Both the position numbers and the translations under genes were made by a program. Source: Ascidia mentula (Eukaryota > Chordata > Ascidiacea > Phlebobranchia > Ascidiidae). Taken from it: a DNA stretch of 64,000 nt. The notes under the pieces were generated by a model. It had not been told where the DNA came from. It did not search any database and was given only the letters and a program-made list of their open reading frames with translations. Positions 9,101 to 43,100 of this stretch are shown here, one piece after another (within the stretch, counting starts at the first letter, position 1; each line of letters opens with the position of its first letter). The stretch spans positions 20,258,266-20,322,265 of the forward strand of contig OX387197.1 of the NCBI GenBank assembly GCA_947561715.1. The letters run 5' to 3'.

Positions 9101-12100
9101 ATACGTTGCCAACATATGCATTATTTCACTTTACTAACCTTCAGGATAACAACCATGAAAAGGATTGAAATAAGCATGAGCAAAAATGAGTTGATAAACC
9201 AAGCAACCCAATGAACTCCATTGCTCAAACCCATCATTTTCATGACCTGGGAAAACAATGCACTCACATTAAATATTGATAAGTTAACACTGACTATTTG
9301 AACATTCAAGCGACTTAACAATTCAAAATCATATAAAATCTAGTGTTTAGTTCAGACAAACTATTAGGTTTTATTTAGCACCTCTTTGAGTCTTTGCTCT
9401 TTCTCATACACAATGTTCTTGACAGTTATAGAAACAGAATATATCCATGCCAGAGTCATTATGAGTGCCATAAGGTTGGCGAGGAATTCTAAAAACCTGC
9501 AATTTGAAGTTTAAAATGTCTTTAGCTTGTTTTATGTTAATGTATATTAAATGCAGTGACAAAAATCAAAATTGCTTTTTATTAAATGCAATTAAAGCAC
9601 AGATCAGACTGTTTGTGGTTGCAAGAATTACATTGTCTGTAATTATTCATACACACTGATTTTCATACACACAAGTTGTCGCTAACAATAGTTTAACAAA
9701 CAATTATTTTAGGCATAACATGATTTTAAACCACTCCTTGGTTCTTACACAATCCTCAGTTAAAATGAGTTGGGAAGCATTTGTGGAGTCATATGTCACT
9801 GTATGTCATGATAAACAAAGTTCAAATGTTATGAAATTTGACATTCAGAAATAAAATAAACAGATACAGAGGTGTCATTTACCTGTCTCTAGTGTAGCAA
9901 GGATAGGGCATGAATTGAAGATAACTACCCATTGGACTGTATGTGCTGTTCCCCTTTGCATAATTAAGGATTGCCGTTTCAATTAAATCTTGCAAATGAA
10001 CAAAACCACTAACGAAGTATTTGACTTGGTTTATAGAGTTTTCGGAGCCAGGCCCAGCCGAACTGTGTGGAGAGAGTTTATTCAACTTGGTAAATGCAAA
10101 TAAAACAAAGGCCCAAGTAATCTACATACAATCGTTGCGTCCTGGTGGTACGGGTGGCAGTGGTTGCATCCTGTCGAATTTTGTATTTAATAACTGGTGG
10201 CATTTTATCGTCCAAACTTGAGGGTGAAATGAACACAACTCCTGAAAATGCAACAAGTAGTTTTTTTCTTGCATTATTTTTTAGTCAGTTCTAATATTAT
10301 TACCTCCAAACAACATGTTTTTATCAAGCAAAGCAAGGGAGTTTTTGACAAGTTCTTCTTCTGTTGAATATCCCACAAACTTATCCAGCTCAAAACATCC
10401 AACAACCTTTGTTATAGAAATAACTTTTTTATATACATTTCTTCTGAACATATTAAATACATAAAGGTAAACATATTTTCTCAAAATATTGTCATACATA
10501 ACAGGAAATGACAAAATAGTCAATTTATCAAAAAAAGGTCGCCAGTGTTTAAAGGTCGCCAGTGACAAGACAGCAGCAGATTCTCAGTATTGAAACATTT
10601 TAAAAAGCGAAAATTTTTGACCAAGGAAAAATGTCAAACAACAAAAATCACAGAACCTTATTCAAGTCTTCACATAATACAAACTGCGCTTTATTCTTTT
10701 CAGACTAATGTTTGACCAGTATCACATAAAAATTCCCGCCCAGTAAGTCAATGCAGTAAAGTATATTAAAGTCAAGCAAAGTGGAGCCAATAATATGAAT
10801 TGTGTAAGCTGCAGACATACTTTTAGACGACTTTGCTGACCAAAGGCCCAGCAAAGGTTTCCACTTTGTGGTGACTATACAATCACCGTCATCCATTGGG
10901 CACCAAACTAGGTGCAACCTTACGGAGTGGACACTCTATGGCCAAGCAAAGCTCAACCAATAGTGCCGTCAGGCCCCGTGTCACAACCTTTTTATGTCGA
11001 AACAGTGGCCATCTGTCTGCAGCTTACACAATTTATATTAAAGTTGTTTAACTGTTCACTCTACCTGCGAAACCAGTGAGAATAATCCATCAACTTGACG
11101 ATACACATCTTTCCAGGTTGTTATGGTATCGTTGGGGTTATCGTCATTGGAAAGAAAAACTTTGAGCTGTTCAATTTGAGCGGCAGTCAGATTGGTCTGT
11201 GCTGTGATGAACCCAACTGTAGCAGGATTGTTCAACAAATCCTATAACATAACATGATATTGTCAGGTTTAGGCAACCCAGACATAAATAAAAATTTATT
11301 GGTCTTCACTCTGAGTGTGGTTGTAGTTGTTCCATTTTCCAACTGTTGATATAAGGCTGGTCCTGTGGTGGATTTCCAGGTTTTGTCCAGTAACTCCACA
11401 AAGGCTATTGCTTCAAATGTGGCGTTGGCCTCTTTTATGATTTTTCTAACCAGCGGCGTATCCGGGGAATAGGTGATTTTACCTTGAAGAATATAAAAAT
11501 TACAGTGTTTACCTAGAGAACAAAGGATGGAAAAGGGCACAGAAAGTGAACTGGTAAAGGTCATTTTTCACTAACCATAAAGAAATACTTTCACTGTGTC
11601 CCAGATCACCTTGAAGGCAATATTTCCTTGCATCTGACTTGCGATGTTGTCACAAAATGTTCCTCCAGATCTAATTGCAAAATTAGGTTTAGTATGTCGT
11701 GGTGTCACAAAAAAATCGCAATTAACATACGTCGTGTTTCCCGTGTTCATACTGGAAGCAGCTGAAAATGTGTTTCCGCTTGATGTCGAAGAATTTGCTG
11801 TTAAAGCTTCCAACAGCGTTGACAGTACAGTTGTCTTATTTTCAGGATGGCCACATATTTCCTTTTAATCAACAGGCAGTAAAAGTGACTATTTCAGGTT
11901 TAAAAAATTTTGCCAGTTTATGAGTAGTTCCAGAATATAAAGACTAAATGTGACAACATTTCAAAACAGGTAAAAAATAATGTAACAAGTCTAATTGCAT
12001 AAACCAGTAACAGAATATCAACTCATATGTCCCTTGGCATGCCATCGCACAATGAATATAGAGTTCATTTTTGCCAACTTTTAATAATTGTTAAAATCAT

Positions 12101-16671: not shown

Positions 16672-19600
16672 CTAAACGGGAATTTGGACCACCGCTAGGT
16701 TTTCCAAAACAATTCCATCATCGTCGCCTGAAAGCCCGGGTATATCACATCCGGCACCGGGAGTCGGCAAACCATATTCCTCCTCGAAACCGTCCGTCTG
16801 CATTTTTGCAAAGTTGACGAAAACCTGAAACCCCAAAAAAATAATTCTTTAGTGGACGTGGGACAAAATTGGTGATTCTCGACCTTTTTATTTGCCGACA
16901 CCCTTTAAAATCAATTTTACACATGTAGTTGTGATAAGTATTTATTTGACCAACCCTAAACAATCAGTATTAACGCTGTGAGGTTGCGAGCACCTGCAGA
17001 ACCTCTTCAACCCTACAATGTTACACAATTAACCGTAAATTCATAAATGGCATCCAAAGGTACTGAATTAAACTTTATGGTGCTCCGAGAAAAACAATGA
17101 AACCCACCTCGTCTAATGTGGTTTGACTCAATGAGTAATCTTCGATGTGAAACTTTTCTTTGTTCTGTTCCATGACGTCGAAGAGATAGGAGAGCTTCAA
17201 GTCGTCCAGCGGTATTTGATACTTAACCAACAGGCCATATTAGATACAGCAACCAAGTAATTGGTTCATTATTAGGTACAGCAACCAAGTATTTTGTTCA
17301 TTATTAGGTACAGCAACCAAGTAATTTGTTCATTATTAGGTACAGCAACCAAGTAAATTGTTCATTATTAGGTGCAACAACTATGTAAGGTTTGTCAATG
17401 CTGCAACACCTCAGCATAATTAAAAGTAAAGTTCATTTACCAGCAACATGTTGCTATGGTGTTCTTTCAACACAGAAGTAGGAAAAGAGGACGAAATAAA
17501 ATTCTGAGCATTTTCAGGTTCCTCGCATCGAGCATCGACCTTCACTGTGAGTGTGTAACCTTCACCGAAGCGATTCTTCAAATGTTGTGGACTTCCGATG
17601 CATTTAAACCTTCCATTAACCATGATTGCCAATCTACTGCACAACGCCTCACACTCTTCCATGCTGTGTGACGTCAGCACGATGCAGCGACCGCCGCGCA
17701 CCGCTTCGGCAATTCGGGTCCAGAGGAACCGACGGGACATTGGGTCCATGCCGGCTGTGGGCTCGTCCTGTGAAATTTTAAACGATCTCACATAAATTAT
17801 GAATGACCAAGTAATACGTTTATTATAGAGTCACCCGTTGCAGAAAAAAGGTTTTAGCCATGAAATATTACTCAACGGAGGTAAATTACCAGAGTTACTA
17901 TCGGACAGGACCGAAAGATAAGCATGCTGCATTTTCATGCTAAAATTTGATTTATTTCCAAAACTTTGTTTGGTAATCCTGTATATGACCCAACCAACAA
18001 AAAAAAAGCAAAGCAAAAAAGAAAAGAGAGGTAAAATTGTGTGGATATTAACCACACTGTTTTTAAATGTTTTGCTTTGCGTGTCCGGGAACAATTTTGC
18101 AACGAAACCAATTTAACTTACCAGGAAAACAACAGGTGGGCAGCCGATGAAAGCGATGGCGGCGGATAATTTTCTTTTGTTTCCTCCACTGTAAGTTCCA
18201 GCGCATTTATCCGCATACATTTTCAAACCAAATTTGTTGATTCCCCACTTAGCGACGTTCGGTATGTCTTTGGGAGGTACACCGCGAAGTTTTGCGTAAA
18301 ACTCCAAGTGTTCGCGACCTTGAGTAAAATAACAAACGTAACTTTACCAACAATGTCCAAAATAGGAAAAACTATGATTATTATTTATTAAATACAATCT
18401 GACAACAAACGCGTAAACTTTCGTAAAGTTTGTTTAAACACCAGCGAGGGTCTTTTGTTTTAACAGCTTAACAATTTTTTGTCGATGTATCGCAAAAACA
18501 CCTGTCAGCAAGCTGTTAAGGGCTTCGAACTGTGGGCAGTAACCGGTACATTGCTGCACATCTCTTATGCTGCCGAGAATGCTTGCGTTGCAGATAGTTG
18601 CATCGCCTGAAGAGGGCGTCGTATCTCCGGTCAGCATCTTAAACGTCGTCGTTTTTCCGGCTCCGTTAACTCCAAGCAACCCGAAGCACTCGCCCTGGGG
18701 CACTCCGACGTACATTCTGTGCGATAAATGAAACGCAATCCACATATAATTTTCCGTTTTTTTCGATAATTAGCAATAAATTTATTGCTCCAGTTAGCGA
18801 ATGACGCGAAACAAAATCATTGCGAAATTATAAGTGGCGACAATGCTTAACCACACTTAAATCTCAAGTTTGTAAATAATCTCCTCTCCCTTATACTCGG
18901 CTCATTGACTTAAGTAACAAACACTTCTAACCATCGGGCTGATGTGCAGTTTTCCTATGCAGGAAAAGGGTATTGGATTCAACCAACATTGCCTTAAAAC
19001 TGTTGCAAAACCTTGTTTACAGCAATCATATAGTGAAGCAGCATAACCAGTTTCTCACCTGTCAACGGCAAGCAGCGGTTTCCCACTTATTTGGCTCTTG
19101 TAGATTTTTGACAGGTTTTTGATTCGCAACATGTCGTCACCTCGTCCTCCCGCAATTCTATCTCTTTCTTTCTTCACGTCCTCATCTTCTTCCTCAGTGG
19201 GTGGGAAATTATCAACATTTCCAACCACCGCGGGCTTGATGAAAAACCTGTTTAGCAAGACAGGACACAGCGTGTAAGATATACGACCCGCTGCTTACAA
19301 TCGACACACTCAAGCTCCTGTTTACAACTGGCAGCTAAATATGCCAGGCAGTGATGGCGCGCATATATATATATGTGTGGTATCAGACTGATAAGGATTA
19401 TACATTTTCTTGAGTTTGTTTGTCACACATTTCGCATTTGCGTTATTATTACTTTGAAGATTATCCGACTTTTAACATTTCGATCTTTTGAGATCTTTGT
19501 TTAATCAGCGCCTACCTGTATTGAACAAACACGGTGAAAATAAAAAAGAATGTCCCTTCGACAGCTAGAGCCAAGAGGTTTCTGCCCACAAGGTCGAAGT

Positions 19601-22600
19601 CAAATGGGTTCTTAAACTTGTCAATTCCTGTAAGTATGTTTGATATTACGATGGGAAACGGCGTTAGTTTTATCATTACTAACTTACCAAATGTGGCGTA
19701 AGCATCGGCGTAGGCTTGATTAATTCCCATGTCAATGAGAGCTCGTCCGAGGCAATATTGAGGGAAAATGAGGAAAGCTCGTTGTAGGTAGAAATTCACT
19801 TCTGTCAATACCGGATCGTCGAGATACTAAACAGGTAAAGCATGTTATAGATGTATTATGTTAAATTTTTGAATCTCATAGAACATAGGCAAAAATACGC
19901 CAGGCAGAAGTACAACCATGGGGAATTGTTAAGGCTACCTCAAGGATGAAGGTTGCGATGCTGGCGTTTATTCCGATGAAGATATTTATACAAGTGAGAA
20001 CAACATAAGCTGTGCTTGGGACCTGTGTGAAAGAAAATAGTTTACAAAAATAATGGTAAAGTTTGAAGTTGAAAAGCACCAAAAATCACAAAAAATTGAC
20101 ACATACAAAAAATCGAAATTTAACTTGAAAATAATCGAATTAAATTTTGAATTAAAACTACATTTTAAAAGATGCTTCAGCCCGCTATTATTGGTAGGAC
20201 TTAAGAAATATTTGTGAAGGGTTGTCAAGGAATATTCAAAAACCATTTCAGTTTTTATTTGCAACAGTCAAAATTAAGTATTGTTCACGTGTAAATTACT
20301 TAATCTTGCTCTTCGCTGGCCATAACATTGATGGCCGATTTAGGGTAAAAATGAGCCCAACATTGCATACAAGACCTAATATCCACGTAACAAATAACGT
20401 TTGCTAATCAAAAGTCTCAACACTAAGTAAACATAAAGCTCACGGTGAAGTAAAAGCTGGCAGGATACATCATGGGAGTGATGGCGTAACCATACAACAA
20501 AAGTAGACATATCAGACATGGCAGGTTGTTCGGAGACACGTAAGCTTTGGCTTGGAAGCAGACGAAAATCAGAACCACGATAATGGCAGGGACAGCATAA
20601 TTTACCTGCGAAGTAGATATGCAAATTCAAAGTACAACATATGGAAAATAAAATTTGACCGCAATTCAGTATTTCTTTAACAGGTTTTATACTTTTTGCA
20701 TAAATGTGATATTATCGGGATTATACACAGGAGGTTGGATTATGGTATTATGTTCTAATTCACATCAAAAAAACAAAACAATAGAACGATTTAAACTCTC
20801 TATTGCAATATTCCCAGGAGTAACATGATAAAAATACAAATTAACGTCAGGTAACTACTAACCAGGTCCCATAGAAAGTTGGAAATCCAGTAAACGAACT
20901 GGTTGACGCCGCTAACAAACTGCAGGTGTTTTGCTTTGGTCACTTTCTCCTCAATGAGGAACAGCACGAAACTGGCCGGGATGAACGAGAGAGCGAAGAT
21001 AACGCAGATGGATATGATGGTGTCGGTCGCCGACTGTGTACTATATTCAACATAGAATCAATTAACCCAAACCGCGCTGTCACGTTGATAATACCACAGC
21101 AATGCTCACAACGCGGCTTCGTCGACTTGATTTTCCGTGAAGTTTAGGGGGTGGTTTACCACAACTATTCCGAAGTTGCTACGGTTGACCCCAGGCGGGA
21201 GGAGGGACCGCAGTGCGGCGTTGTTCAGCACGTTTAGCCAGGTGGGCATAGAGTGGTAACCGGAATTATCGAACCAAACCTGCAGGTTTATCAAAACAGC
21301 TTACTAATACGCAGAAATCCTGCATATTTCCGTTTACCAAGGCAGGGTCCCTATTCAACGCCCCTACGTAGTGATCTTAGCTCAAATAACAACCATTAGA
21401 CATGACAACTGGGAGTTCATGACTTAATTTAAAAATATATAAATATGCTATAACAACACCCGAAGGACTACAGGATGTGGGAAATTCTTGAAAAGTGAAG
21501 AAATAACCTGGTTGTTTTCCGTTCTGACGAAGTTCTGCAGACTAATGTTGGCAAAATTATCTGTGGAATTTCCTACAAGCGCCTTGAGATAAGAAAATTC
21601 GGCGTTGGTCCACATAGTGTGGTACCTTTCCCCAAATGATAATCCGCCATACCGCTCTTGTCGAAACCTAGACAGAAATAAGTAGAACTTGTTTGAAACA
21701 TGTAATGTTCATTTATGCCGAGTATGAAAAATTGCTAACCTGTCAGTGGTTTTGACCATCCAATCCGACAGATTTCGGCCGCTCATGTTGTACATTGGAT
21801 TGCTTGTTTCGGTGATCATTTTCATTGTTGCATTTCCACCTGCGCCTTCAGGGCAATCTGCGGTAACACAAAAAAGGTAACTCGAGGTCATATTGTGTTT
21901 TAAAAGAAAACTGTTTTTGCTGTGTTGAACAATTGCACGCTGCACGGGTGCGGTTTTAGTTTATCTTAAATCGTGTGCAAAAAACGTGACCTAAGTCGTA
22001 AATTTCTGTCAAACTTTTAATTGCTTCTGAGGATTGAAACATAATAATATATCTGTATGAGACAGAAGTGTTCGCGCAACGTGCATAAAAATGCGTTACT
22101 TTATTTGCAGCCTCAAAAATCGTTGTTGAAAGTGTGCAAAAGAGCAAGAAAACACATGTGACACTTGAGTTACCTCATAAACCGACGCCATAGAACTTAC
22201 CTGCAAGTAGGACTCGATTATCTTTGTCGGTGCAAGCACAAACTAATGTTTCATTCGAGAATGCAGACTGGCTTCGACCGCGGGTCGAGCTATCATCCGC
22301 CCACTCCTGGCCTAAACGAAACAGGAGATTTATTTAAAAGAATTTTTGTGCAAAAACACTATATTTATCGCACTATATGTCTGTTACTTACTGCCAGGGT
22401 TGTCGCAGTATATGAATGTGTGGTCGTAGTTGTTCTCCACCGTATAGTCGTTGACACATCGCATTCCAATACTCGGTTTGGCAAGAAGAGCTTCACTCAC
22501 TCCCAATGCCATGGAACTGTTGTCGTCAACACTGCAAAAAGGGCGTTCAGTAATTAGAGATCAAAGCCAATGACACAGTCCTATGGTCTACAAAATGCAT

Positions 22601-25600
22601 TTATGTCAAAACTAGAAATTCTTTCCTGCACATCGTGGTTTCTGGTAAAAAATACAGATGCATATGTTTACAATACTGTAGTAAATATGACTTACCAATA
22701 ACAAAAGCATATTAAAATTGTTCACAATATATAACACGTCACATACCTGTGAAATGTGTTGGTATCTCCGTACATCCAAGGTTGAAGCTCCAATGGAGGA
22801 AGGTTTTTATAGTCGGGTATGATCAGAGAAAAGGCGAGAGCCAACGCTACGAACACGGAAGGCACGATAACCTGCGCCACGAAACCCTTCCTGTTTCGCC
22901 TGAGAACACAGTAGGATAAAATACAGGATTTGTATGGCTTGTTTGTACTTAAATTAGGTTCATCCACGAAGAAATGCATTCCACAAAGTAAAGGAATAAT
23001 TCCAAATATGCGAGGATTCCACCACACAACAAATATATTTCCACGGAATATAAATTAACACGTAGTACCACTGCATCTATAGTGCAACAAAATTTGATTT
23101 GTATCTAACAAATTGTGACGACACATTAACAATTACGCTCCCAATGCAGTTTGAAACCTGATGAACTTTCGGGCTAATGCTATATTCGGTAGATTGGAAA
23201 GAGCCACAGTGGTTGCAGGCTCACAACTTGCCAGGTGAACTACATTCCATATACTGTAATATTGGTCTCTACCTTGCGTGGTGGAACCGCTTGACAAAGA
23301 GCGCTTTAAATTGTTGGAACACGAGCTCCTTGCCGGCAATCTGATAAGATCCTCTCGCCTCCAAACCGTCACCGAATTCCTCATTGGGAACTTCCACAGG
23401 GGGTTCAAGGTTATTTAGTGAAGTTTGTGATCCTTCGTCTGTAAATTTGAACGTAACGCGGCTGACAGTGCGGAGATTTCAACATATTTCATGTTTTTAA
23501 GAAATCAAGAAGCACAAAAGTTTGTTGTGGAACCAACAGTGAAAAAAACATCACACAATACAAAAAAACAAAAAAGAGTCTTCGGCAGTTCGTAAGTGTG
23601 AAAAAAAGGTAATTCTGTAAACAATTTCCAATATTGTGGGATAAAGTGCCCCCAAAAAATCAAAACCATGTTAAAAAATATCAGTTGTGAACGTATTTAG
23701 CGGCTGCAAAAGTTTACAATGCATTAAAAAGTAAAAAATATTTGGAAAATTTTCGTGCAAATTAAACACCCACCTATCCTTGAGTAGGGAAACGGATCCT
23801 GGCCTGAAAACACAAGCAACATGCATAGAGTGTGAATTGCCACCCAATAATTTCAGTGTTAATATGAGTCAACATGAAAACACTGATGTTAATTGCAGAT
23901 CCAGGACAATTATTTACGTCGTTACCTGAATTATCCAATAAAAATTACCACGAGGATCCAAGATATACAAAACGCAATTATTTGAAGAATTTATTTAAAG
24001 ATAGCGTTTGGCAAAACACCGCAAATTATAAATGTTGGGTATTACGTATATGTGACAGAATTACATGATGTATCATCTTAATGAAAATATGTATCGGTAT
24101 GCATGCAATGTTTTTAATTTAATTGATGTACTTTCCCTACGGGACATCAAACAAAATCAAGAAAATGAGTTGGAAAATACGCACCCAGGTTAGGATTGCA
24201 ACAACAGGAAAGTTTCAGATCTGCGAAATAAAAAATTGCTTTTTGAAAGATTAGTGTGCTTATTGAGGTTAGCCACCGCAGCGCTACTAAAAATGCAGGG
24301 GGTCGTTAGTTACTCAACGTACGACGTCTTTTGCTTCTGCGGGACGATCCTCTGCGCGCTTGAAACTCTGTGTTGGATTCGTTTTCTGGGTTAATGCTCG
24401 GCTTGTGGCGAGTTGGAAAACAGCCGCAACCTGTCAATACATCAATACATAAATGTCGATCTTTGCTACTATCTGTATGGATGCATGAGTTCCCAACAAA
24501 AGTAGACGTTGTCTTTGTTTTTTGCGCGGCGGCGTTTTACGATGGAGAAATTGCTATTTTAGCATGGTGAAAGATGGTCATTTAAACATTACGCGTTTGT
24601 TAAACTGCAATTTGACGTGAGTCGACTTCACGTAGGAACAAACTTGGGATACACTGACAAGTTTTGCAAGTCACAAATGGCGTTCCTGAATCCAAAACAA
24701 AATTCATGATGAGTTAAAACTCACATTTCTTCTCCTCTTCTCGACCTCCGTGTTCACTTCCATCAGCAACAGCCAGAAATATTTCCTCTAGGCTTGTGTC
24801 GGTCAAACCGTACGAGATTCCATGTAAGTCCAACACCGAGAAAAGCTTCCCATAGCTGTGAAATCGATTCGAGACGATAAAATTTATCCCAAAACAGTGT
24901 TTACCGGAAAAGAGTTCCGGCGTATATGTAAATTATAGCTACAGAGATTAAATCTGACATTTAACTGCAGTCACATTTTTCCGCCTTTACCAAGTATTTC
25001 AAAACATTGATCAGCATCTGCGCGTTTTGCTGTCAATATTTATGCATTTGGGTAACACTTACTAGCCCTCGTTCAGAGCGTCGTAGGGCAATACGAACGT
25101 GACCTCTCTGGCATCTTGTTCGTGCAGTTTTGCGCTAGGTATAACGTCCAAAACCAACCGCGAATAATCGGCTGCAACTTCGCCAGTCAGAACGCAATCC
25201 GCTGTAACAAAAAGTTTACACAAACATTGTTACCAGCGTCTTGCTATCTAAATATAGATGTGCAGACAGCACAATTAATATAATATTGCAGCATATTTGT
25301 GTGCACCCGTCACGTTTCCGTCCTCGCTTATTCTTTGTTAAGTTTTAACAACCGACGCAAGCAATTGTTACGTCAGACTTCTGACACAATAAAAAGAGCA
25401 TTATGACTATTTCAGCTGAACATTAGGCTGAAAAACTAAAAGTAATTGTTGGCGCTTATAGACCATATGCGAACTGGTGATGACACAAAAAGCCACAAAA
25501 CTGTTGAAACATATGAAGATAATCAACCTGCTTCATCGGGCGGAATGTATTTAGCTTCGGAAACAGCCTCGTCTGGGTCAAAGTTCAGGTCGCTAGGCGG

Positions 25601-28600
25601 GTTGACGGGTGATGACGTGGATTGTGTTGAAGAAGTGGATGAGCTTGCGTCAATGGATGAGTGGGATGATTTGGAAATATCGTCAGTACGAACGGACTCA
25701 AAGCCCTCGTCAGAAGCCTGAAAGAAAAAATGCTGTTATTTGGTGTATATCCATTTTAAAAACCAGACCAAACTGTATTATGTGTTACTACAAAGGCAAT
25801 TATATTGCATTCGCCTACCTTCAGACTTTGTAGAGAAGATTTGTTGTCAATATTGATGGGCAAAGCGGACTTCGACTCGTTTTTGACGAGAGTCAAATAA
25901 TAACCGACTCCGTAGTTACTTTTGAGGTAAATCGACGAACCGCAACACTTCAATTTACCCTGGTGCAAAATATTCGTTTTACAGAATAGATGTCGAATGA
26001 ACACTTTATTGAAACTAACATGAGATATGATGGCGATCCGATCTCCGAGCAAATCCGCTTCGTCCATATGATGTGTGGAAAGAATAATCGTTCGTTTTTC
26101 TCTGTACGCGAGCAACAAATCCCATATACCACGTCGTGCGTACGGATCCACTCCTGTGAAATAATCGTGTTTGATTGGCGATGTTGGCGAACAGCTGTTT
26201 AACTTAATCGGTTTGAAGGCAACATACCTGCAGTTGGTTCATCGAGGATGACACATTTCGATCCACCCACGAAAGCGACAGCAACCGAGAGTTTTCTTTT
26301 CATTCCACCCGACAGATGACGTGAAATCTCGTTCCTTTTGTGCGGGAGACCGACATCTTTCAACATTTGCTCGATTTCAATTTTCCCTCCTTGGGAATTC
26401 TTGAGGCCTGAGTAAAGCTCGAGATGCTCTTGGACGGTGAGACTACAAAAAAAACATGTTTATTTTCACGACTTTGATTCGAAAAGATTTGCATTTCAGA
26501 GCTGTTTTGATGCGAACTTCTCTGTGTCAAACACTGGAGAACATGGTTGAAGTTATTTTAGGCGTAACAATATCAATAAAATTGTTAACGTGGGCAACAT
26601 TAATTGTTAACGTGGGCAACATGCGTACGTTGTTTCAAACAATGACATAATTTATATATTAGTTTAATGTTGTTATTAAACAAATAAAAGTATGTTAAAA
26701 AAGTGTTCAATGGAAACAATTCCATGGTGTTTACAACGAATTATACGCTCTTTCAATTTGTAGCAACAGTTGAAACCAAACATAAATTTGTGGGTATTCG
26801 TATACCCACAGGGCAATGTAGATAAGGTTGTTTATCAGGTAAGAATATTTTCGCACAAACAGTTAAATGGCGGTCACGGTGACACTACCGAAAGCCCGGG
26901 ATCACTTCGCTGGAAAGAATGACTTTGCCTCGGGTTGAAGCGACTTACTCTCCAAACAGTACGTTGTGTTGTGGACAGAAACCAAGTTGACTTCGAATAG
27001 AATCCATGTCTGTACAAATGTCGTTTCCGTAAACGTAGGCGGTGCCGGCTGTTGGTGTGAAAAGTCCGGTCAACATAGACATCGTAGTCGTTTTTCCCGC
27101 CCCGTTGTGACCGAGAAAGGAGGTAATTTGATCTTCGTAGAAGTTGATCGACAGATCGTCCACTGCCACTTTACCGTTGCTAAAGCAAAAGACAAAATAA
27201 TTGATATGAAATGGAGTTGCATTTTTTGCTTTTTTATTTCACTGTACACTTTATCGACTACGAATGTGCAAAGGAATTCTATGTAGGCCTACATGGAATA
27301 GTAAGTAGACGATATTTAAGGATATATTTTGATGTTTATCAACGTGGCAAAACATTTGTTGCCAATTTCAAACACATCCAGATTATTTCCGAACTGTGGA
27401 TTTTTTTCCAACGTTTGTTGCGAAAGTATTTACCTGTATACTTTCTTAAGGTTGTGTATTGAGACGCCCATTCGAAGATTGGTCGGTTCCTGCTCCAGTC
27501 TTGCATTTAGCATTGTGACGTCAGCAGCAGGGCTGTCGTTGTGATTCTTACGTCGTCCTGATGACGAGCCGCACCAATAAGAACGAGTTGCGAAGAAGTA
27601 CCAAGGCCTTGGAACACCATATTTTCCCGGAAATACGTTCTCGATATACCTGTGTAGGAAATGACGACATGACACATATTACGCCTCTACAATGAGGTTT
27701 AGCAATGCAAATATTCTTATTGTAGCATTTCCATATTTACCATGTCAACAGGAAATAGATGAAGGCGTCGACCAACATCATGATAAGCGTGATGAGAAAG
27801 TTGAGTTCGTCACCTGGGTCTGGACTGCTTGCCCAGTTACTGAACTGGACGCCGTCGCCCGACATTTCGAACTGCGATATGTAACCAGCCCCATATCCGA
27901 AAGCAACGTTTGACAACAAGCACTGATAGAACAATATACACTGTGACACACTGAGATATTTAACGCGACTTCACGTTTTTGATATCTAAACTAACCTATT
28001 TACAAATTATAATCACTTTATTATTATAACGTTTTGCGGCCAGTAAAGTCCGTATTTTTTGTAAAGACTATTATATTTTCCTAATATGAAATGTTGTTAC
28101 CAAATAAGATAGAGGGGATCTAATTCTGAAGCACAAGGTATGTACTGTAAGTGGAAGCACGAAACTTACGGCTACAAGTTTTGTGGACAAGGTCATCTCG
28201 TCGTCCCATACGACAACCATATTGTAAGGAATGTAAAGTAAGAAATATATAATTCCTCCGCAGGCAGCAGCCAAGTTGGCCCTAAAACAAATAAAAATTG
28301 GCAAGTGTTACACAATGTTTGTTTGTGTAACTCTTGTTTGCAGTAACGTTTAGATTGTTTGCCGGAATGTTTCGTGGTTTAGGAGAAAAAGACGTTTTTC
28401 TTATGAAACATGCTTCACAGGATTATGTAACTCTGTGCTTACCTGGAAAAGAAACAACTGATGAGGAAGCACTGTGCGATCGTTGCGATGGCAAAAAAGC
28501 TCAACCACAAGAGAATAATGAACATGTTGCTGTAAGGAGTTATTGTGCCAGCCTGAAGTACAAATGTACATGTTGGATGCAATTTTGGCAATTTCTGGGT

Positions 28601-31600
28601 CTGACGAAGATCCACACAAAATCATCCAACACACCCGAATATGCATATTTTACCCTCGGAGCATCATCAGTATTTTTATTTAAATGTTTTTTTTATTTAT
28701 TTTATTTAAAAATTTGGTTATTTCTCACCTTTAGAATAATCACCATTAGTAGGACTGATATGAACATAACTATAAAGGAGTTGATGAACCAAGCAACCCA
28801 GTGGACACCATTGCTCAATCCCATCATTTTCATTACCTGGCAAGACAGTTATTAGTAACTTTTCTTACCGAGAGTCAGAATAATGATATTCAACATAAAT
28901 TCTCTCCGAATTGCAAGAAAAAGGTTTGCTCAGAAGAGTATAAACATAAAAACAAACCTCTTTCAGTCTTTGCTCTTTCTCGTAAACAATGTTTTTAATG
29001 ATGATACAAACTGAATAAATCCAGGCCAATGTCATAATTAGGGACAGAAGTGATGAGAGATATTCCAAAAACCTGCAGACAAACCTGATAAAACCCTCTC
29101 TTTCATGAAGTTAGAGAAACAATTACTCTCTTTTGATATTTTCAAAAACAAAAACTTTGCATAAAAAATTTGCATTAACACATATAAATTTAATTATATA
29201 TGTACCTGAATTGGAATTTTTTACTTTGACACCAAATGAATGATTAAATATTTACTCAAAAGTAACATGCATAGAGATGCTTGACTAGCAGGTGATTTAT
29301 GAATGCCAGAAAGTTATTGACTTTTTGCACATACGCAGAAAGTTACTGGACTTGTTGCTTATCATCACGTAAAAGCAAATTACAAACAAGCAGTCAAACT
29401 GTTTCCTGTGTTTTTGCATGTATTCACTATTTTAATAAGAAGCACAGTGGGGCAAATTACATAAGAAAGCTCATTTGGACACTCCATGCTTTCTTACTCA
29501 TCATATGTATAACAGGGGTATGGAAACTGTTGCATGTAAGCTCCCCAGTTGATTGAAGCATTAGGGGTGGCATTAGTCATAACATTGATGATGCCAGTTT
29601 CAATAAGGTCTTGCAGAAAAAGAAAACCGCCACTATAGTAACCCATTGTTATTGAAGTTGGGTCATCATAGGCATCAGGTATCCAGTAACTGTCGTTTAT
29701 ATAAAATATTTAGACTCTTAAAATAAAACGGCCATAGCAGGAATGGGTAATTTTATTTCTACTTCAGGAACTGCCTCACCAGCATTACCCATTCCTTCTA
29801 TCGGGCCTTAAAATCACCTGTCTCTTGTAAAGCAGGGATATGGCATAACCTGCAGATAGCTTCCCATTGGGTTGTATTGCCCCACCCAGGAACTATTGCT
29901 GCTGAACACATGCAGAATTGCTGTTTCAATCAGATCTTGTAGATGCACGAAGCCACTGATGTAATATTTCACACGACTTCTGCCTGTTTCAGAGCCAGGC
30001 CGCCAGTAACTGTCAAATTAGATTCATGCTGATTGCAACAAAAAAGCTGCCACAAAAATTACCCACAAATTTGTAATTAAAGAATGCATTTGAATGAGAC
30101 AGGTTCTCATAATTATTTTGGCCAGAAATTGTAAATTTGGTATTATGATCTAGTAATTATGCACTATAAATTAAAAATTATTTATGTTAAAAATTGTTTG
30201 CCATGTTGATTTTACACATGCACATGGAAAAGGGCTTTAAACATTCTAATTAAGAAAATGATCCATGCATAAAGCACAAAATATTACACACTAAATTACA
30301 ACTGTAGTTCAGCAGCAAACCACTTTAAATATTTTGTAAGCATTTGCCCGACCCATTTCCTAAATATGTTGCACTTGTTATATTTGGATTATGTATACTT
30401 GTATAGTCTAGTGGACCTAAAACAATACAAGGAAGACATACAATCTTCGAAGGTACGTTGTCCAAGTCACAGTACCAGAATCTTGTCTTATTTTGTATTT
30501 TACAATGTTGGCCATGTTAACGTCAGTGCTTGAAGGGGATTCAAAAGCAATTCCTGTAAAATTAAGAACATATATATTTTACCAGTTGTTTCGGATTCAA
30601 TTAAAATTGGCAAAAAATTGTACCTCCCCACAATGTGTTGTTGCCCAGAAGTGAGTGAGCATATATTTCCATGTCATATTCAGTGTGAAATCCCTCAAAC
30701 TTATTCAATTCCAAGCAGCCTAACAACTAAACAAAAGAGATGATTGTCATAAAATAACAAGAAAATACAATTTTGTTCTCCAAAATTCACAGACGTTTTG
30801 AGGACAGAAACTGAAACTGAGGTCAGTAGGAAAGACTGAAAAGTCGTGACCAAATACCAGCTTTATCATATTTTTGGGTAATTACCCTGCACGCATGACT
30901 CACAGATTGGCAACAAATTCAGGAAACTGTCTATTGCATGACTTGTCACATGACGTAGGTTTTAGTTTACACTGCTTGCTGAAATATGACACACATTTAT
31001 GTTGAAGGGATCAAATTACATTTTCATAACATAGAACACATGGATTACAGCAGTTACGACAAAAAAGAGTTTTGTAAATTTCATGTGGTCTTTAAAATAC
31101 AAACATTGTAATAAAAACACTTTAAACACAAACATAATAATTACTGTCTATATTTTTCACATGGCCTATATTTGTGCATGATTTTGCGTTTAGGTGTAGT
31201 ATGGTTCAACTTTTATGCTTTACCTTGGTAACCAAAACAACCATGCTGTCGAATTGTCGATATGTCTCCTTCCATGTTGTAACATTGTCACTTGAATTAT
31301 CATTGTTGGATAGAAAAGCTTTGATTTGCTCAAGTTGGTTTACACTAATTCCAGTCTGAGCAGCCACAAAGTCCAAAGTAGCTTCGTTTTCCAAAGCCTC
31401 CTTACAAAATAGACAGGACCTTTTAGTTTTGACATTCTTTCATAGCAAGTAAGTCACATACCCTTAAACCCTGTGCCACAGCACCACTTTCCAGCTCTTT
31501 GTATAGAGATGGTCCAGTTGTAGAAGACCAGTTTTCTCCAAGGTTCTGTATTAATGCAATGGACTGGAAAGTAGCATTTGCCTCTTGGATTATTGTCCTT

Positions 31601-34049
31601 ACAAGTGGTGTATCAGGAGAAAACGGTATTTTGCCTAAACAACAAAATTAAACAATGGAAACTGTTAACAGTGTGTCACTTTCAATAAAGCAATAAATTT
31701 TGAGTTGATTATTACAAATTTTGCTTACCCAACAACAAGGGTTTTACAGTTTCCCAAAGAATGGCAAGTTCATCATTTTCTTCAAACTTTGCAATTAGAT
31801 TGTCACAGAATTCCGCATTGTCCCTTAATATACAACCATGAACTTATGAGAAGCTACAATCACTTTTGTTTGTTGTTGTGTCTGTCATATACATACGAGC
31901 TGTTTAGTGACGATGTATTGAACATGGAACCCACTGGCGATGAGGGATCGTTGGATGCATCCAAAAAGCCAGAAATCACAGTGGTTTTGTTTTGGGGGTG
32001 TCCGCATATCTCCTACAACATTTTGAATAATTAATTTCTATGTTAACAAATCTAAAGCACTTAACGATGTTATATAAATTGCAACATGAAATCCTAACAA
32101 ACGTTTTGTAAATAACTACACAATCCAATAAAATTTATGTCAGTTTGTAATAAGTTAAAGCTTACGTACATTCACTGCATTTGGAGATGATAAATCAACA
32201 CCCAATAAAATTGACAAAATTGCTGTTCCTGACATTCCTTGGTTTGCACTGCTCAGGATATTCAGAAGTGGTCCCTGTATCACCTGAAGCTCGCCCAGAG
32301 TTTGGTTTAGACGCTGTTGGGCTGCCAAAACCTCGGCTGATTGAAACTGACTTTCGTTGACCAAAGTTATACCCTTGCAAAAATGGTTTTATTTAGACAA
32401 TCCAGTGTTTCATTTACACTGATATTGCAGTTTTACTTTTGCAAAAGCTACCTGCATAGAAAATTTTGTTGTTAAAATAGTTGCACTCCCAAGGCTTTCC
32501 TGGGTACGAATGCGTAGCAGTGTTAAGCTGGTATCATTTAGATTGCACAATGCATTGGAAACTTGAAACACAGTGGCAGGACCAGATTGTGGAAATTGTA
32601 GAGTGAAGCTGAGTACAGTTGCATTGCATACCACCTCCCTTGAACCAAGTACACCTGGGAGGGCTAAGGCCTGTGACATATTACAACAGAAGAAAAGTTT
32701 AGGTCTGTTTGAAACACTTTCAAGCATTTAATACCTGCAAAAATGTGACATTGCTGTTGACCAGTGTGTTAATGACATCAGATGTTAGTGATAGATGAAA
32801 AGAGAGGAAATTTGTATAGGATGCTGGACTATCCAAAATTGACGAAAGCACAACTGGAAGATACAATTTGGGTAAGGTATAAACTTCTTGGTGTTATATA
32901 CACAAGATGTTGCATGGCTACAAAGTTGTTGTGTTGCTGCTAATCATTTCTTTATTCTTTTTCAGGTCAGTGGGGGAGGAATGTGAAAACATTTCATGCA
33001 GAAAACAAAATAGGACTAAGCTAGTAACAAGACAACTTGTAAATCATTAACCGACAAAAGGCAATAGAAATGACAACAGCAAACATAAAAAACTTTTATA
33101 GGTTTCTAATTATGCGTCATAAATGGACTTAGGTAGTTGCAAATATTTACATACAGTTCAGGAAAAGCAAAATCACTTGTCCATGTAAAGTAATTGGTCT
33201 TGAATTCTCTTACCTGATTGATTTGCTCCTGATACTGATGACTGGGCACTGGCCCCCAACAGTGTCAAGTCATTTGTAAATTGTTCGAGGTCATTAAAGC
33301 TGGAAACATTTTCTTGTAACAGGGAGAAAATATTAAGCAATGCTTCAGACGATCTAAATATATGCAAAAAAATGAATTATGACGTAATTGATATAAAATG
33401 AATGGTAGCCCAACCAATTGGCATTTACCCGTTAAAGGAGTTGCTCAGATTATTAATTTGACCTGGTGTTTCCGACGGTACCTCTACACTGAAACAAGGG
33501 TTTCTAATGTCACAAAGCAAGCTTTTGAACCATGGATACACGCCAGCAGATGGCATTGCCCTCGCTGGGTAATGACCTACACAAACACATCTATTGTAAA
33601 AGATGAGTCAGCACATTACAGGCAATCATCAACAACACCTACATTCTCCTTTTGTTTCAGCAACCTGAGTTTGACGAATTGCAACTAACACCGCCAGTAA
33701 AAAGAGAGGCCATACTATTTCAACTCCAGTCCGCAGCTGCAACAAAAACATTTTAAGCATGTAATAAATAAAATTACAACAGCATGTTCACCAACAAGAA
33801 AACCATTACTATGCTTACTTACTGTACAATAAATATAAATTACTGCTGTATGACAAAATACACACAAAGCCAGATTGAAGTAACAATCACTTTAGAAAAA
33901 TCAGCAGCCTATAAAGTGCTTAACAAACAGTCATTTAGTGTTAAACTAAAAGTAATATTGAGTATTTACTGTAAAACAATACATACTAAGTGTCTTTTCC
34001 GCAATATAAAGTTCTTCCACAGAAGGAGGCGAAGTTGTTTCCAAAACAT
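16672..34049 (-). CDS. ABCA1-like: ABCA1/4/7-type full-length ABC transporter, copy B (complete)
   Basis: This complete paralogue of copy A lies head-to-tail with it. Exon 1 (33987-34049) starts [20 protein letters not shown] and ends at donor GTATGT. The extracellular domain includes [20 protein letters not shown] (about 33500). The first membrane block carries [10 protein letters not shown] (about 28980). NBD1 Walker A is at about 27080, the signature [10 protein letters not shown] at about 26300 and STHHMDEAD at about 26060. The acidic linker is at 25500-25715 and the second membrane block at about 22900-19510. NBD2 Walker [17 protein letters not shown] lies at about 18660, signature [10 protein letters not shown] at about 18170, DEPTAGMDP at 17760 and [13 protein letters not shown] at about 17650. 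The last exon (16672-16824) opens with VFVNFAK, the C-terminal motif known from ABCA1, and ends [10 protein letters not shown] plus TAG at 16672-16674. Members of this group export or flip phospholipid and sterol. Two alternative versions of one extracellular exon are present (separate entries). Confidence 0.94.
17236..17389. repeat. 32-bp minisatellite in an ABCA-B intron
   Basis: The motif GCAACCAAGTAATTTGTTCA recurs at an exact 32-bp spacing (starts 17249, 17281, 17313, 17345), followed by a decayed copy near 17374. It fills the intron between the NBD2 Walker B/H-loop exon and the exon beginning [14 protein letters not shown]. The copies differ at one to three positions, so it is young or homogenised. 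No function is evident. Confidence 0.85.
29498..29689 (-). other. ABCA-B extracellular exon, version 2 of a duplicated pair
   Basis: This second 192-nt exon lies 128 bp downstream of version 1 with the same boundary phases: acceptor CAG at 29690-29692 and a GTAAGA donor. It encodes a homologous but diverged segment, starting [20 protein letters not shown], then [15 protein letters not shown] and [12 protein letters not shown], with no stop codon inside. Spliced directly to the FLEYLSSL exon it gives DEFLEY; from version 1 it would give DSYW. It can therefore be used instead of, or in addition to, version 1 without shifting the frame. I saw no second copy in the matching intron of ABCA-A. Confidence 0.82.
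29818..30009 (-). other. ABCA-B extracellular exon, version 1 of a duplicated pair
   Basis: This 192-nt exon (64 codons, phase 2 at both ends) has acceptor CAG at 30010-30012 and a GTGATT donor. It encodes a segment beginning [20 protein letters not shown] and containing [12 protein letters not shown] and [10 protein letters not shown], corresponding to the last extracellular segment before the first membrane block of human ABCA1 (YWDPG...MPYPC). It is the closer match to the single equivalent exon of copy A (9883-10062). It joins in frame to the upstream exon ending near 30450 and to the downstream exon starting FLEYLSSL near 29070. Confidence 0.85.
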
Positions 34050-40132: not shown

Positions 40133-43100
40133 TCAGTTGGTCCGGAGCTGGTAGTCTGCATGAAAACAAAATACATTGTCATTAAGTAGCCAAAGCAGAT
40201 AAAGTTATTTTGCGAATTTAATCAACAAATACCCACCGCCATTTTGAGTGATGTAGCGAACCCAGGGCAAGGCTTGGTAGCCGCTTTTTTCAATGATTTT
40301 CAAATAACGTACCTGAAAACATTGAAAATTTTTGAGATGAAACAAATTGCTTTCAGGTCTATGTCGCAGAGGGTGGTTATGAAAATAAAGAAACTTTTTG
40401 ACATGATACGATTTGTGGAGCAGGAACGCACCTGAATACCAGATGTTGTGAAGTAAGGAATTTCGAACTTGACACTGATGGGAGGTCTGCCTTCAATTTC
40501 CTCACTTTCGACACTCGGCAACCCGAAGTGGGCTCTCATCAAATATTCCTTACCTCCCTAAAGAAAAGTTTTTTTTTGCAAATTACTTCAATTTCTCACC
40601 AGGACAAAAAATATTGTGGTAAAAGGAAGAAGTCAATTCAAATTGATTCGTTGCCTATGGAATTCAATCTTGAAGCAGCCACAAACCTGTTTGCATTTTA
40701 ATTAGTGTCCAAACCGCTGTTAAATGAAACAAATCATAACAGATGTAAAACCGTTTACATGTGGCCCAAGTCGAGCAAATTATTGCAAACGTTAATTGTA
40801 AACCTTGCAGACATTAGGTGGTTTTATAAGTCACGTTTCAGCGGTTGCTAGGTACCACTTACAGGAAAGGACTTGATCGTCCACACAATGTTAGTGGACT
40901 CAGGCATCCACTTCACACTTCCCACCGACGTTTTGAACTTGGGAGAATCAGCGTCGTTTGGCACCGGAATATGGATCTCCACATTGTTGGCCGTTGACCT
41001 TCGCTTGAACTGACTCTTGGCCTGTGAAAAATTTCAACCGGATTTCACCTCGCTGCGTACCGAGAACAACTTTACGCGTAAAGTTACGAGGAGGAACATG
41101 TCAAACGGGTTTCGTTGCCAGCACAATATATTACCTTAACCATAATCTCAACTCTGCTGTGTGAGTGGCGCTCTATAACCGACTCGATCCAAATCAGCGG
41201 CTTCACCTGTGTATAAAGGTACGTGGGAGGTCAGTTTCAACAAGCGAGCACTTGAAAACCATGTGCGTACGTGTGTATTGAGGCGATATGACATGAGTTC
41301 AAACTCGCCGTCGGGTGGGATGAACGAGATGGTGCGGTCGTTTTCAAAACGCGAGAGACGAACGCACTGGTGGAACTTGATGTCCTCCATCTCAACCGCC
41401 TTACTCTTTCCCCCTGGAAAAACAAATGGGTTAGGTGTCAGAACACCCCCCCTCAGCACTTTGGCACATTGTTTTGTGTGGTGTGAAAGTACGATTAATT
41501 TCCCGTTACGCAGGAACGAACACTACGGTCAAGAGTTCGTCTCCGCTGTTTCTTTGTTTCTCGGTCGCGCGCTGTATTCACGCGGCGATGACCGCTTATG
41601 AAACAATCGTTTGTTGTGCCGTTGGTCAATAACCCGAAAACAATACCGGTTTCGAAAGCGCGGCCTTATAAGTTTATTCATTTCTGCTACAATTTCTACA
41701 CAGAAGCCGCTTGCGCCGTAGTTTCATTACAACGACTTGGAAAGAAAGGTTTAAATATATGTGTTATCTAAAAGGAATTAAATGTGGGCTTACGTTATCA
41801 AGAAAACATTCAAATAAAAACTATGTTGCATGCGGTAGCCTTATATTCCTCTTTGCACTTTTGCGAGCGCTAACAGTTGTTTTCAACATGCGTAATATTG
41901 GCAACGTGTTCAACAACTAAACTGATTTCCACCGAGATTTTGACAAAAAATTACAGCATGATTAATGTCCGAAAAAAATTTAACCGCATCTAACGGCTTC
42001 ATTAATTAGGTACCGAAAGCGAACACCCCCCTCATATTTTTTCTAGATCCGCCACTGTTAACATTCATAGAGGGGCGGCGTTAGGTTTGCATAGTACAAA
42101 GGTTGTGTAACTATGTGATTGTTCCAAGATTTGGCACGGCTTGCGTGCGTCACCATGCGGGCATTGGCGCACGGTAAAAGCGCATATCAAAAAATAACTT
42201 AAAATTAGAGTACAAGTAAATAATAGCATCTTACTTCCGGTGTTCTGAAACAAAACTTTGTCGTTGAGTCCTAATCTCAACTCGGGCATTCCGGACAGAA
42301 ACACTCTCATTTTCACGCTGCCGACAATTTCAGATCGCAGAACGTTACCAGTTGTGCTGACCAGGAGGTTCACAGACTCAATAACGTCCAGGAAAACCTG
42401 AAGACAGAAAACATCAATGACGTGAATTTTACACTTCTACGTGTTGCAAGTCATATTCACCTCGTTTTTGCGATATTTCAAACCTTCTGATCGCCACGAG
42501 ACAGCGTTAGTGACGGTAGATGGAGGACGGACTTGTACTTCAAGCTTGTGACTTTCCTGGGTTATATACCTGTATTCAAAAATGTCATGTACATAGTTGC
42601 ATAACAATGTTTGGTGAGGATATTATAGCATTGCGTTCACATACTCTTGAAGAATCTTTGGGTCACTGAACTGAGGATAACCAAAGTCCATAACTTCATC
42701 GAACAGTTCGTAAACAATTACGAAATTGTCCTTAATACTCTCCTCTTCAAGTTCTTTAAAGTAGTGAGAAAAAATCTGCAAGGAAATGTTGTGTTTGTAT
42801 AATCCTGACCACCAGAGAATTTTCAAATCCATGTTTCTTGGGATGTGAACCACATGGGTTAAGCAAAACTTGATCGGGGCCCACAGGATTAAGATAATAA
42901 AACAATTTCATGGCCTACCTTCACATCACTATTGTAGCATAACATTTCAAAGTGACTGGAAGTATAAGTGAAATTTATGACAACAAAAGAAAGTATTTCA
43001 TTCTGAAAGGATCTGAGATATTGTTAAACACAAAAGTTAGGTCAAAATTGTTTTATAACCACTGGTGCAAATTAATGCTACATATGTTAATAAACACAAT

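What the first reader, a model, noticed from the sequence alone, without database searches (positions are those of the whole stretch)
29498..30009. Tandem duplicated 192-bp exon in ABCA-B, a candidate mutually exclusive exon pair
Two homologous exons of exactly equal length (192 nt) and identical boundary phase sit 128 bp apart in the last extracellular segment before the first membrane block. Both have intact acceptors, donors and reading frame, and share the family pattern YW.P...(F/V).LQDLIET...PYPC. They differ strongly in the variable middle and at the end (TRDR versus TYDE). Either can join the flanking exons in frame, giving DRFLEY or DEFLEY; including both is also in frame. ABCA-A has a single version. 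In ABCA1-type proteins the extracellular domain engages lipid and acceptor proteins, so swapping this segment could change substrate or partner choice.
Basis: partly seen in the sequence, partly recalled or inferred. Interest (0 to 1): 0.8.

Follow-up and report, generated by a model that had tools for sequence, protein, structure and literature searches.

The report
Swappable lipid-gateway exon in ABCA1-type transporter
One lipid-pump gene in this animal genome carries two alternative versions of the exon that builds the pump's lipid-entry loop, one acidic and one basic, and both look old and functional, so the cell may choose between two forms of the pump; no RNA has yet been seen to prove it.

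Summary
Two adjacent 192-nt exons (V1 30009-29818, V2 29689-29498, minus strand) with the same phases, open frames and intact AG/GT sites sit 128 nt apart in an ABCA1-type gene (ABCA-B). Of 28 open AG-192-GT spans in the window, V2 alone resembles V1. New points: (1) the exon aligns to human ABCA1 573-630, most of the published lipid 'gateway' loop (564-592). (2) Gateway net charge differs: +5 with V1; -1 with V2, as in human. (3) ABCA-A's single exon is V1-type (40/59), while V2 is closer to human ABCA1 and ABCA7. A duplication confined to gene B is disfavoured (AU p 0.045/0.016), so the pair probably predates the A/B gene split. A-B synonymous sites are saturated, so V2 has probably stayed intact under selection. 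(4) The intron between them holds a single-copy 78-nt hairpin that could block V1-V2 joining; four UGCAUG (Rbfox-type) motifs lie in or near the pair. Mutually exclusive choice is likely but unproven: no RNA data and no other species were available, and double inclusion is in frame.

The parts
29818..30009 (-). V1: 192-nt exon encoding ABCA1-like residues 573-630 with a basic gateway part ([19 protein letters not shown]...)
29498..29689 (-). V2: 192-nt exon, same phase, acidic gateway part closer to vertebrate ABCA1 ([21 protein letters not shown]...), two N-glycosylation sequons
29690..29817 (-). 128-nt intron between V1 and V2
29730..29807 (-). hairpin in that intron (18-nt arms 29784-29801 / 29734-29751, 94% complementary; extended stem, 78 nt in all); exact stem found once in the genome
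30442..30553 (-). constant exon upstream (encodes the start of the gateway, ABCA1 564-572)
28958..29072 (-). constant exon downstream (FLEYLSSL..., start of the following membrane block)
30010..30441 (-). intron upstream of V1 with two TGCATG motifs (first bases 30269 and 30222)
29909..29914 (-). TGCATG motif inside V1
29266..29271 (-). TGCATG motif in the intron downstream of V2
17500..34049 (-). ABCA-B gene (approximate extent: N-terminus to second nucleotide-binding domain)
   Evidence: matching blocks; extent approximate
9883..10062 (-). single corresponding exon of ABCA-A, 180 nt, V1-type

Best explanation
V1 and V2 are alternative, most likely mutually exclusive, versions of one exon of a full-length ABCA1-type lipid transporter. 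The exon encodes most of the gateway loop plus the rest of ECD1 up to TM2. Choosing V1 gives a strongly basic gateway; choosing V2 gives one with human-like net charge and different potential N-glycosylation sites. The gene would thus make two forms of the lipid entry site, probably with different lipid headgroup preference or export rate. Shown: anatomy, reading frames, homology, charge and sequon difference, and that V1 rather than V2 is the match of ABCA-A's exon. Inferred: the pair predating the A/B split; long-term selection on V2; exclusive use; the hairpin shortening the path from V1's donor to V2's branch point and so blocking V1-V2 joining; an Rbfox-like factor repressing V1 (sites upstream) and favouring V2 (site downstream); changed lipid handling.
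For: Equal length, phase and frame; no comparable pair elsewhere in the two genes. Exon aligns to ABCA1 573-630; gateway 564-592, with Tangier mutations D571G, R587W, W590S/L and loss of efflux by gateway mutants (PMC9381790, passages). Charge: gateway 6 basic/1 acidic with V1, 2/3 with V2, 5/6 in human. V1 groups with ABCA-A (support 88/88 and 98/95); V1+V2 as sole sisters p 0.045 and 0.016. A-B blocks upstream of 27700: pS 0.74 over 905 codons; V1-A pS 0.90. Neutral V2 copies keeping ORF plus AG and GT at 0.75 substitutions per site: 95 of 20000. Hairpin: z -2.67, 2 of 200 shuffles; 4 such hairpins in 149 kb, itself included; exact stem once in the genome. TGCATG: 4 of the 14 on the window's minus strand lie in this 1.37 kb; 42 of 2000 shuffles reach 4. 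An Rbfox-like RRM is encoded on C67.
Against: No transcript evidence. Joint inclusion is in frame, so NMD would not remove it. The plain steric rule fails: V1 donor to the likely branch A is 108 nt, against the <50 used for human MXEs (PMC5740500, passages). Intron pairings gave mixed results in six tests. The tree rests on 60 columns and 8 rows; V2's own place is open, p 0.045 is borderline, V1+V2+A as one clade is not rejected (p 0.18/0.15), and V2 with human ABCA1+ABCA7 is not favoured (p 0.062/0.032). The hairpin criteria and TGCATG were picked after reading; AATGGG is equally enriched in the region. ABCA1's K568 and D571 are Y and R in the constant exon of B (alignment), so its gateway chemistry may differ from human.
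Confidence: 0.65

Rival explanations
1. Both exons are normally included together, giving a transporter with a duplicated 64-residue segment before TM2.
For: 192 is a multiple of three and V1-V2 joining is open; the 128-nt intron with a branch-like A at 108 is spliceable if the hairpin is open.
Against: V1 and V2 each match one stretch in the ABCA1, ABCA7 and ABCA4 chains of the PDB, and the genome searches show one such place in ABCA-A and one in the C71 paralogue. The segment starts inside the gateway loop, so a tandem copy would have to be inserted into it (inference). The hairpin lies between the exons.
Confidence: 0.15
2. Alternative but not exclusive: V1 or V2 is an optional exon and the other the default, with all combinations tolerated.
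For: Every combination is in frame. Both acceptors are weak in pyrimidines (0.50 and 0.45 against 0.60-0.70 in five neighbours) and the donors differ in strength (U1 -8.2 against -4.5).
Against: Skipping both would remove most of the gateway and the PYPC/PYPP stretch present in all eight rows aligned (PYPC in six, PYPP in C73a and human ABCA3).
Confidence: 0.13
3. One copy, probably V2, is a dead or unused duplicate.
For: V2's donor is weaker than V1's and its acceptor poor in pyrimidines, though the neighbour em1 has a weaker donor still (U1 -1.1); ABCA-A has no V2, and no V2 remnant was found in its two flanking introns.
Against: V2 scores higher than V1 against ABCA1, ABCA7 and ABCA4 (38.7/38.9/28.6 against 28.4/28.6/25.0 bits), keeps 19 of 23 outgroup-conserved columns (V1 17, ABCA-A 18), and has an open frame and splice sites despite apparent age.
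Confidence: 0.05
4. A question of history, not exclusive of the above: V1 arrived in gene B by exchange with ABCA-A (gene conversion or unequal crossing over) next to an original V2, rather than by tandem exon duplication before the gene duplication.
For: A and B do seem to exchange sequence: three NBD1 blocks are 89-99% identical in DNA between otherwise diverged genes.
Against: V1-A is itself saturated (pS 0.90), so any transfer was about as old as the gene split; the 19-nt shared acceptor repeat (84%) fits local duplication.
Confidence: 0.15

Closest known systems
Human ABCA1 (and ABCA7, ABCA4) ECD1 gateway region
   Same: Exon aligns over its whole length to ABCA1 573-630 and ABCA7 483-540; same place before the following membrane block.
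   Different: The ABCA1, ABCA4 and ABCA7 chains matched have one version; W590 is I in V1 and S in V2; gateway charge would be switchable here.
Tandem-duplicated mutually exclusive exons (Dscam, 14-3-3zeta, srp and others named in PMC6071210; human set of PMC5740500)
   Same: Adjacent homologous exons of the same length, phase and frame.
   Different: Exclusive junctions not observed; no frame-shift, U2/U12 or plain steric enforcement; docker-selector pairing not established.
Drosophila MRP1, named among mutually exclusive exon genes with intron pairings (PMC6071210, discussion read); an ABC transporter of the ABCC group by recall
   Same: ABC transporter with swappable coding exons.
   Different: Different subfamily (recall); here the extracellular lipid gateway of an ABCA protein is duplicated.

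Membership tests
Mutually exclusive exon pair (criteria of PMC5740500) | Neighbouring internal exons of similar length, same frame, sequence similarity | tested here: met
Mutually exclusive exon pair (criteria of PMC5740500) | Junction reads from each exon bridging the other, no reads joining the two | not testable with these tools
   no RNA data held
Mutually exclusive exon pair (criteria of PMC5740500) | Joint inclusion breaks the frame (NMD); one possible enforcement, not required | tested here: not met
   192 nt each, joint product open
Steric-interference MXE | Donor to branch point under 50 nt | tested here: not met
   108 nt linear to the CTAAA A; about 30 nt only if the 78-nt hairpin is closed (the 30 is my inference)
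U2/U12 incompatible MXE | Incompatible splice-site classes | tested here: not met
   All four sites GT-AG with ordinary donors; judged by eye
Docker-selector MXE | One intron site complementary to a site next to each exon beyond chance | tested here: inconclusive
   Six tests, shuffles as good or better: acceptors/downstream intron, weaker of two 10 of 300, sum 51, V1 alone 174, V2 alone 11; acceptors/upstream 293 (weaker); V1 donor/downstream 9 of 300; donors/upstream V1 13, V2 225; middle/downstream 86 of 100; middle/upstream 68 of 100
ABCA (ABCA1/4/7-like) transporter | Long ECD1, two TMD-NBD halves, ABC2_membrane_3 | tested here: met
   (matching blocks, not a full gene model)
ABCA1 orthologue proper | Closer to ABCA1 than to ABCA4/7 in a resolved tree | tested here: inconclusive
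   ABCA1 ranks first for the 269-aa stretch but no full-length tree was made

The most novel reading that the evidence does not exclude
A splicing switch toggles the lipid gateway of an ABCA1-type exporter between a basic form (net +5) and one with human-like charge (net -1). This would change which phospholipids are lifted from the outer leaflet. The tandem gene ABCA-A has kept only the basic type, so gene duplication and exon duplication share the same functional split. A hairpin in the intron between the exons enforces the choice.
Probability: 0.3. Interest if true: 0.75.

Novelty: new member of a known kind. Interest (0 to 1): 0.52.

Why it matters
[quoted passage not shown] A natural gene that offers two gateways of very different charge on an otherwise identical protein would be a ready-made test of whether gateway charge sets lipid choice. 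It would also show a tandem gene copy that has kept one of the two exon choices of its sister gene.

Tried and rejected
Competing intron pairings (docker-selector): tested by duplex energy against shuffles. Three single comparisons were better than about 95% of shuffles (V2 acceptor/downstream intron 11 of 300; V1 donor/downstream 9 of 300; V1 donor/upstream 13 of 300), and the weaker of the two acceptors against the downstream intron was reached by 10 of 300; the others were not better than chance, and the V1 acceptor alone was reached by 174 of 300. I leave this inconclusive. The 13-nt near-complement of the V2 acceptor in the downstream intron (29338-29350; 12 nt of it also to V1's acceptor) is of a size that recurs in the same table. 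Mobile-element origin of the hairpin: no second copy in the genome by DNA search or by exact patterns; diverged copies are not excluded. V2 remnant in ABCA-A or a third version near the pair: tblastn found only short weak matches. Fox-1 C-terminal family PF12414: no hit, and the tool's controls were also empty, so uninformative. Structure prediction was not used: the tool admits only proteins read straight from the DNA, so I judged that an exon-joined segment would not qualify, and one 63-residue exon alone would say little.

Papers: listings only, no title reporting this pair: ABC transporter with mutually exclusive exons (7 of 7 listed), ascidian ABCA (5 of 5), tunicate mutually exclusive exons (15 of 1,469), ABCA1 with mutually exclusive exon (15 of 17), MRP (4 of 4). 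Subscription journals are mostly outside this library.

Full report
WHAT IS THERE. On the minus strand, gene ABCA-B carries two neighbouring exons, V1 (30009-29818) and V2 (29689-29498). Each is 192 nt and begins T|TAC TGG after the same GACAG acceptor end. Each ends after two bases of a codon, so each joins the upstream exon (30553-30442) and the downstream exon (29072-28958) in frame; V1+V2 together and neither are also in frame. The intron between them is 128 nt. V1 and V2 proteins are 27/65 identical by BLASTP and 27/61 in a global alignment. Of 28 open AG-192-GT spans in the window, only V2 resembles V1 (119 against 29 for the next). The gene matches a second tandem gene, ABCA-A, block by block from an N-terminal M to the nucleotide-binding domains. 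PDB searches with a 269-residue stretch return ABCA1, ABCA4, ABCA7 and ABCA3; Pfam gives ABC2_membrane_3.

WHAT THE EXON ENCODES. In 7tbw numbering the exon aligns to ABCA1 573-630. In PMC9381790 (passages read) residues 564-592 are the gateway, a charged loop at the base of the extracellular tunnel proposed to lift phospholipid from the outer leaflet. D571G, R587W, W590S and W590L are Tangier disease changes there, and several engineered gateway changes cut efflux without affecting surface expression, while the control Y573F had little effect. In PMC10792246 (passages) W590S kept 50% of wild-type cholesterol efflux. The duplicated exon supplies 573-592 of this loop; 564-572 comes from the constant exon. 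Counting K/R and D/E, the full gateway has 6 basic and 1 acidic residues with V1, 2 and 3 with V2, 4 and 1 in ABCA-A, and 5 and 6 in human ABCA1 (the paper also gives 5 and 6). The W590 position is I in V1, S in V2 and V in ABCA-A (alignment). V1 has one N-glycosylation sequon, V2 two, ABCA-A one, human ABCA1 none in this segment. That these differences change lipid handling is inference. The key human residues K568 and D571 are Y and R in B's constant exon (alignment).

HISTORY. A whole-genome search with V2 or V1 at E<=1 gives four places in each case: V1, V2, the ABCA-A exon and a paralogue on contig C71. ABCA-A's exon is V1-type: 40/59 identical to V1, 26/57 to V2. V2 is the copy closer to vertebrate proteins: 29/58 with human ABCA1 against 24/57 for V1, about 10 bits better against ABCA1 and ABCA7 and 3.6 bits against ABCA4. 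In a tree of 8 rows and 60 columns V1 pairs with ABCA-A (support 88/88 with the mixture model, 98/95 with LG). V1+V2 as exclusive sisters has p 0.045 and 0.016, the first borderline; V1+V2+A as a clade is not rejected (p 0.18, 0.15); V2 with human ABCA1 and ABCA7 is not favoured (p 0.062, 0.032); V2's own place is open. So the exon pair probably predates the A/B gene duplication and ABCA-A probably lost V2; no remnant of V2 was found in ABCA-A's two flanking introns. A-B synonymous differences were counted on 35 coding-frame blocks picked (alternative-frame and cross-domain matches dropped): pS is 0.50-0.92 in 31 of them and 0.06-0.32 in four (three NBD1 blocks and 21042). Over the blocks upstream of 27700 pS is 0.74 (905 codons), and V1-A is 0.90. 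At 0.75 neutral substitutions per site, 95 of 20000 simulated V2 copies kept frame, AG and GT, indels ignored. V2 is therefore very unlikely to be unselected, provided the tree is right.

HOW THE CHOICE COULD BE MADE. The 128-nt intron folds into a long hairpin (z -2.67; 2 of 200 shuffles fold as well) with 18-nt arms, 94% complementary. Hairpins with 18-nt arms, at most one mismatch and loops up to 60 nt, criteria set to fit this one, occur in 4 places in 149 kb of this genome's sequence, this one included. The exact stem occurs once in the genome. It starts 10 nt after V1's donor, spans 78 nt and ends 40 nt before V2's acceptor; the likely branch A is at intron position 108. Linear distance does not block splicing, but with the hairpin closed only about 30 nt would separate donor and branch point, below the 50 nt that PMC5740500 (passages) treats as sterically limiting. 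That step is inferred. TGCATG occurs at 30269, 30222, 29914 and 29271: 4 of the 14 on the window's minus strand (21 on the plus strand), with 42 of 2000 shuffles of the region reaching 4, and none in 10130-9497 around ABCA-A's exon; AATGGG is enriched as much. PMC5840707 (passages) states that RBFOX1 promotes skipping from upstream and inclusion from downstream sites, which here would favour V2 over V1. In a genome search with a recalled Rbfox RRM the top hits were other RRMs on C2 (40-44%); two neighbouring pieces on C67 match at 71% and 57%, and their reading frames carry [22 protein letters not shown], which marks an Rbfox-type protein by recall. The motif was chosen after reading the sequence. 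Both acceptors are pyrimidine-poor compared with five neighbours. Docker-selector pairings, the classical mechanism and its proposed origin by exon duplication (PMC6071210, abstract and discussion read), were tested and remain inconclusive.

VERDICT. A candidate mutually exclusive exon pair, real and probably old and functional, in a place where it matters. It is a new member of a known kind; no listed title reported it (in one search only 15 of 1,469 were seen). Exclusive splicing and altered lipid choice remain to be shown. Only one genome was available, so conservation in other species, and the host's identity, were not tested.

Noticed in passing
window 27190-26014 against 7748-6857: NBD1 blocks of ABCA-B and ABCA-A are 0.96, 0.89 and 0.99 identical in DNA (pS 0.13, 0.32, 0.06), against pS 0.50-0.92 in 31 of the other 32 blocks: probable recent gene conversion at the ATPase exons. 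The block 21042/2418 is also low (pS 0.29).
   Followed up: partly
window 18116-18816 against 1-459: The second nucleotide-binding domain is partly the same: one in-frame block is identical in 37 of 37 residues, the next is 87.5% (80 residues), and several alternative frames are 93-100% identical, again suggesting conversion.
   Followed up: no
L018/L019 (C71 about 94.3-95.4 kb): A third ABCA1/4/7-like gene in which the corresponding exon is split by an extra intron after ..KYYD.
   Followed up: partly
window 41434-42080 and C73 about 4046819-4047770: A stretch in the window is repeated, with translated pieces 58-95% identical, between exons of an ABCA-like gene on C73, and in part near C71 95.9 kb: probably a dispersed repeat.
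   Followed up: no
window 10062-9883: ABCA-A's exon has lost the YW pair at the start of the segment (SA instead), which V1, V2, C71 and human ABCA1 keep.
   Followed up: no
window 17238-17388: A 32-bp tandem repeat, 4.7 copies, 92% matches, in a probable intron near the 3' end of ABCA-B.
   Followed up: partly
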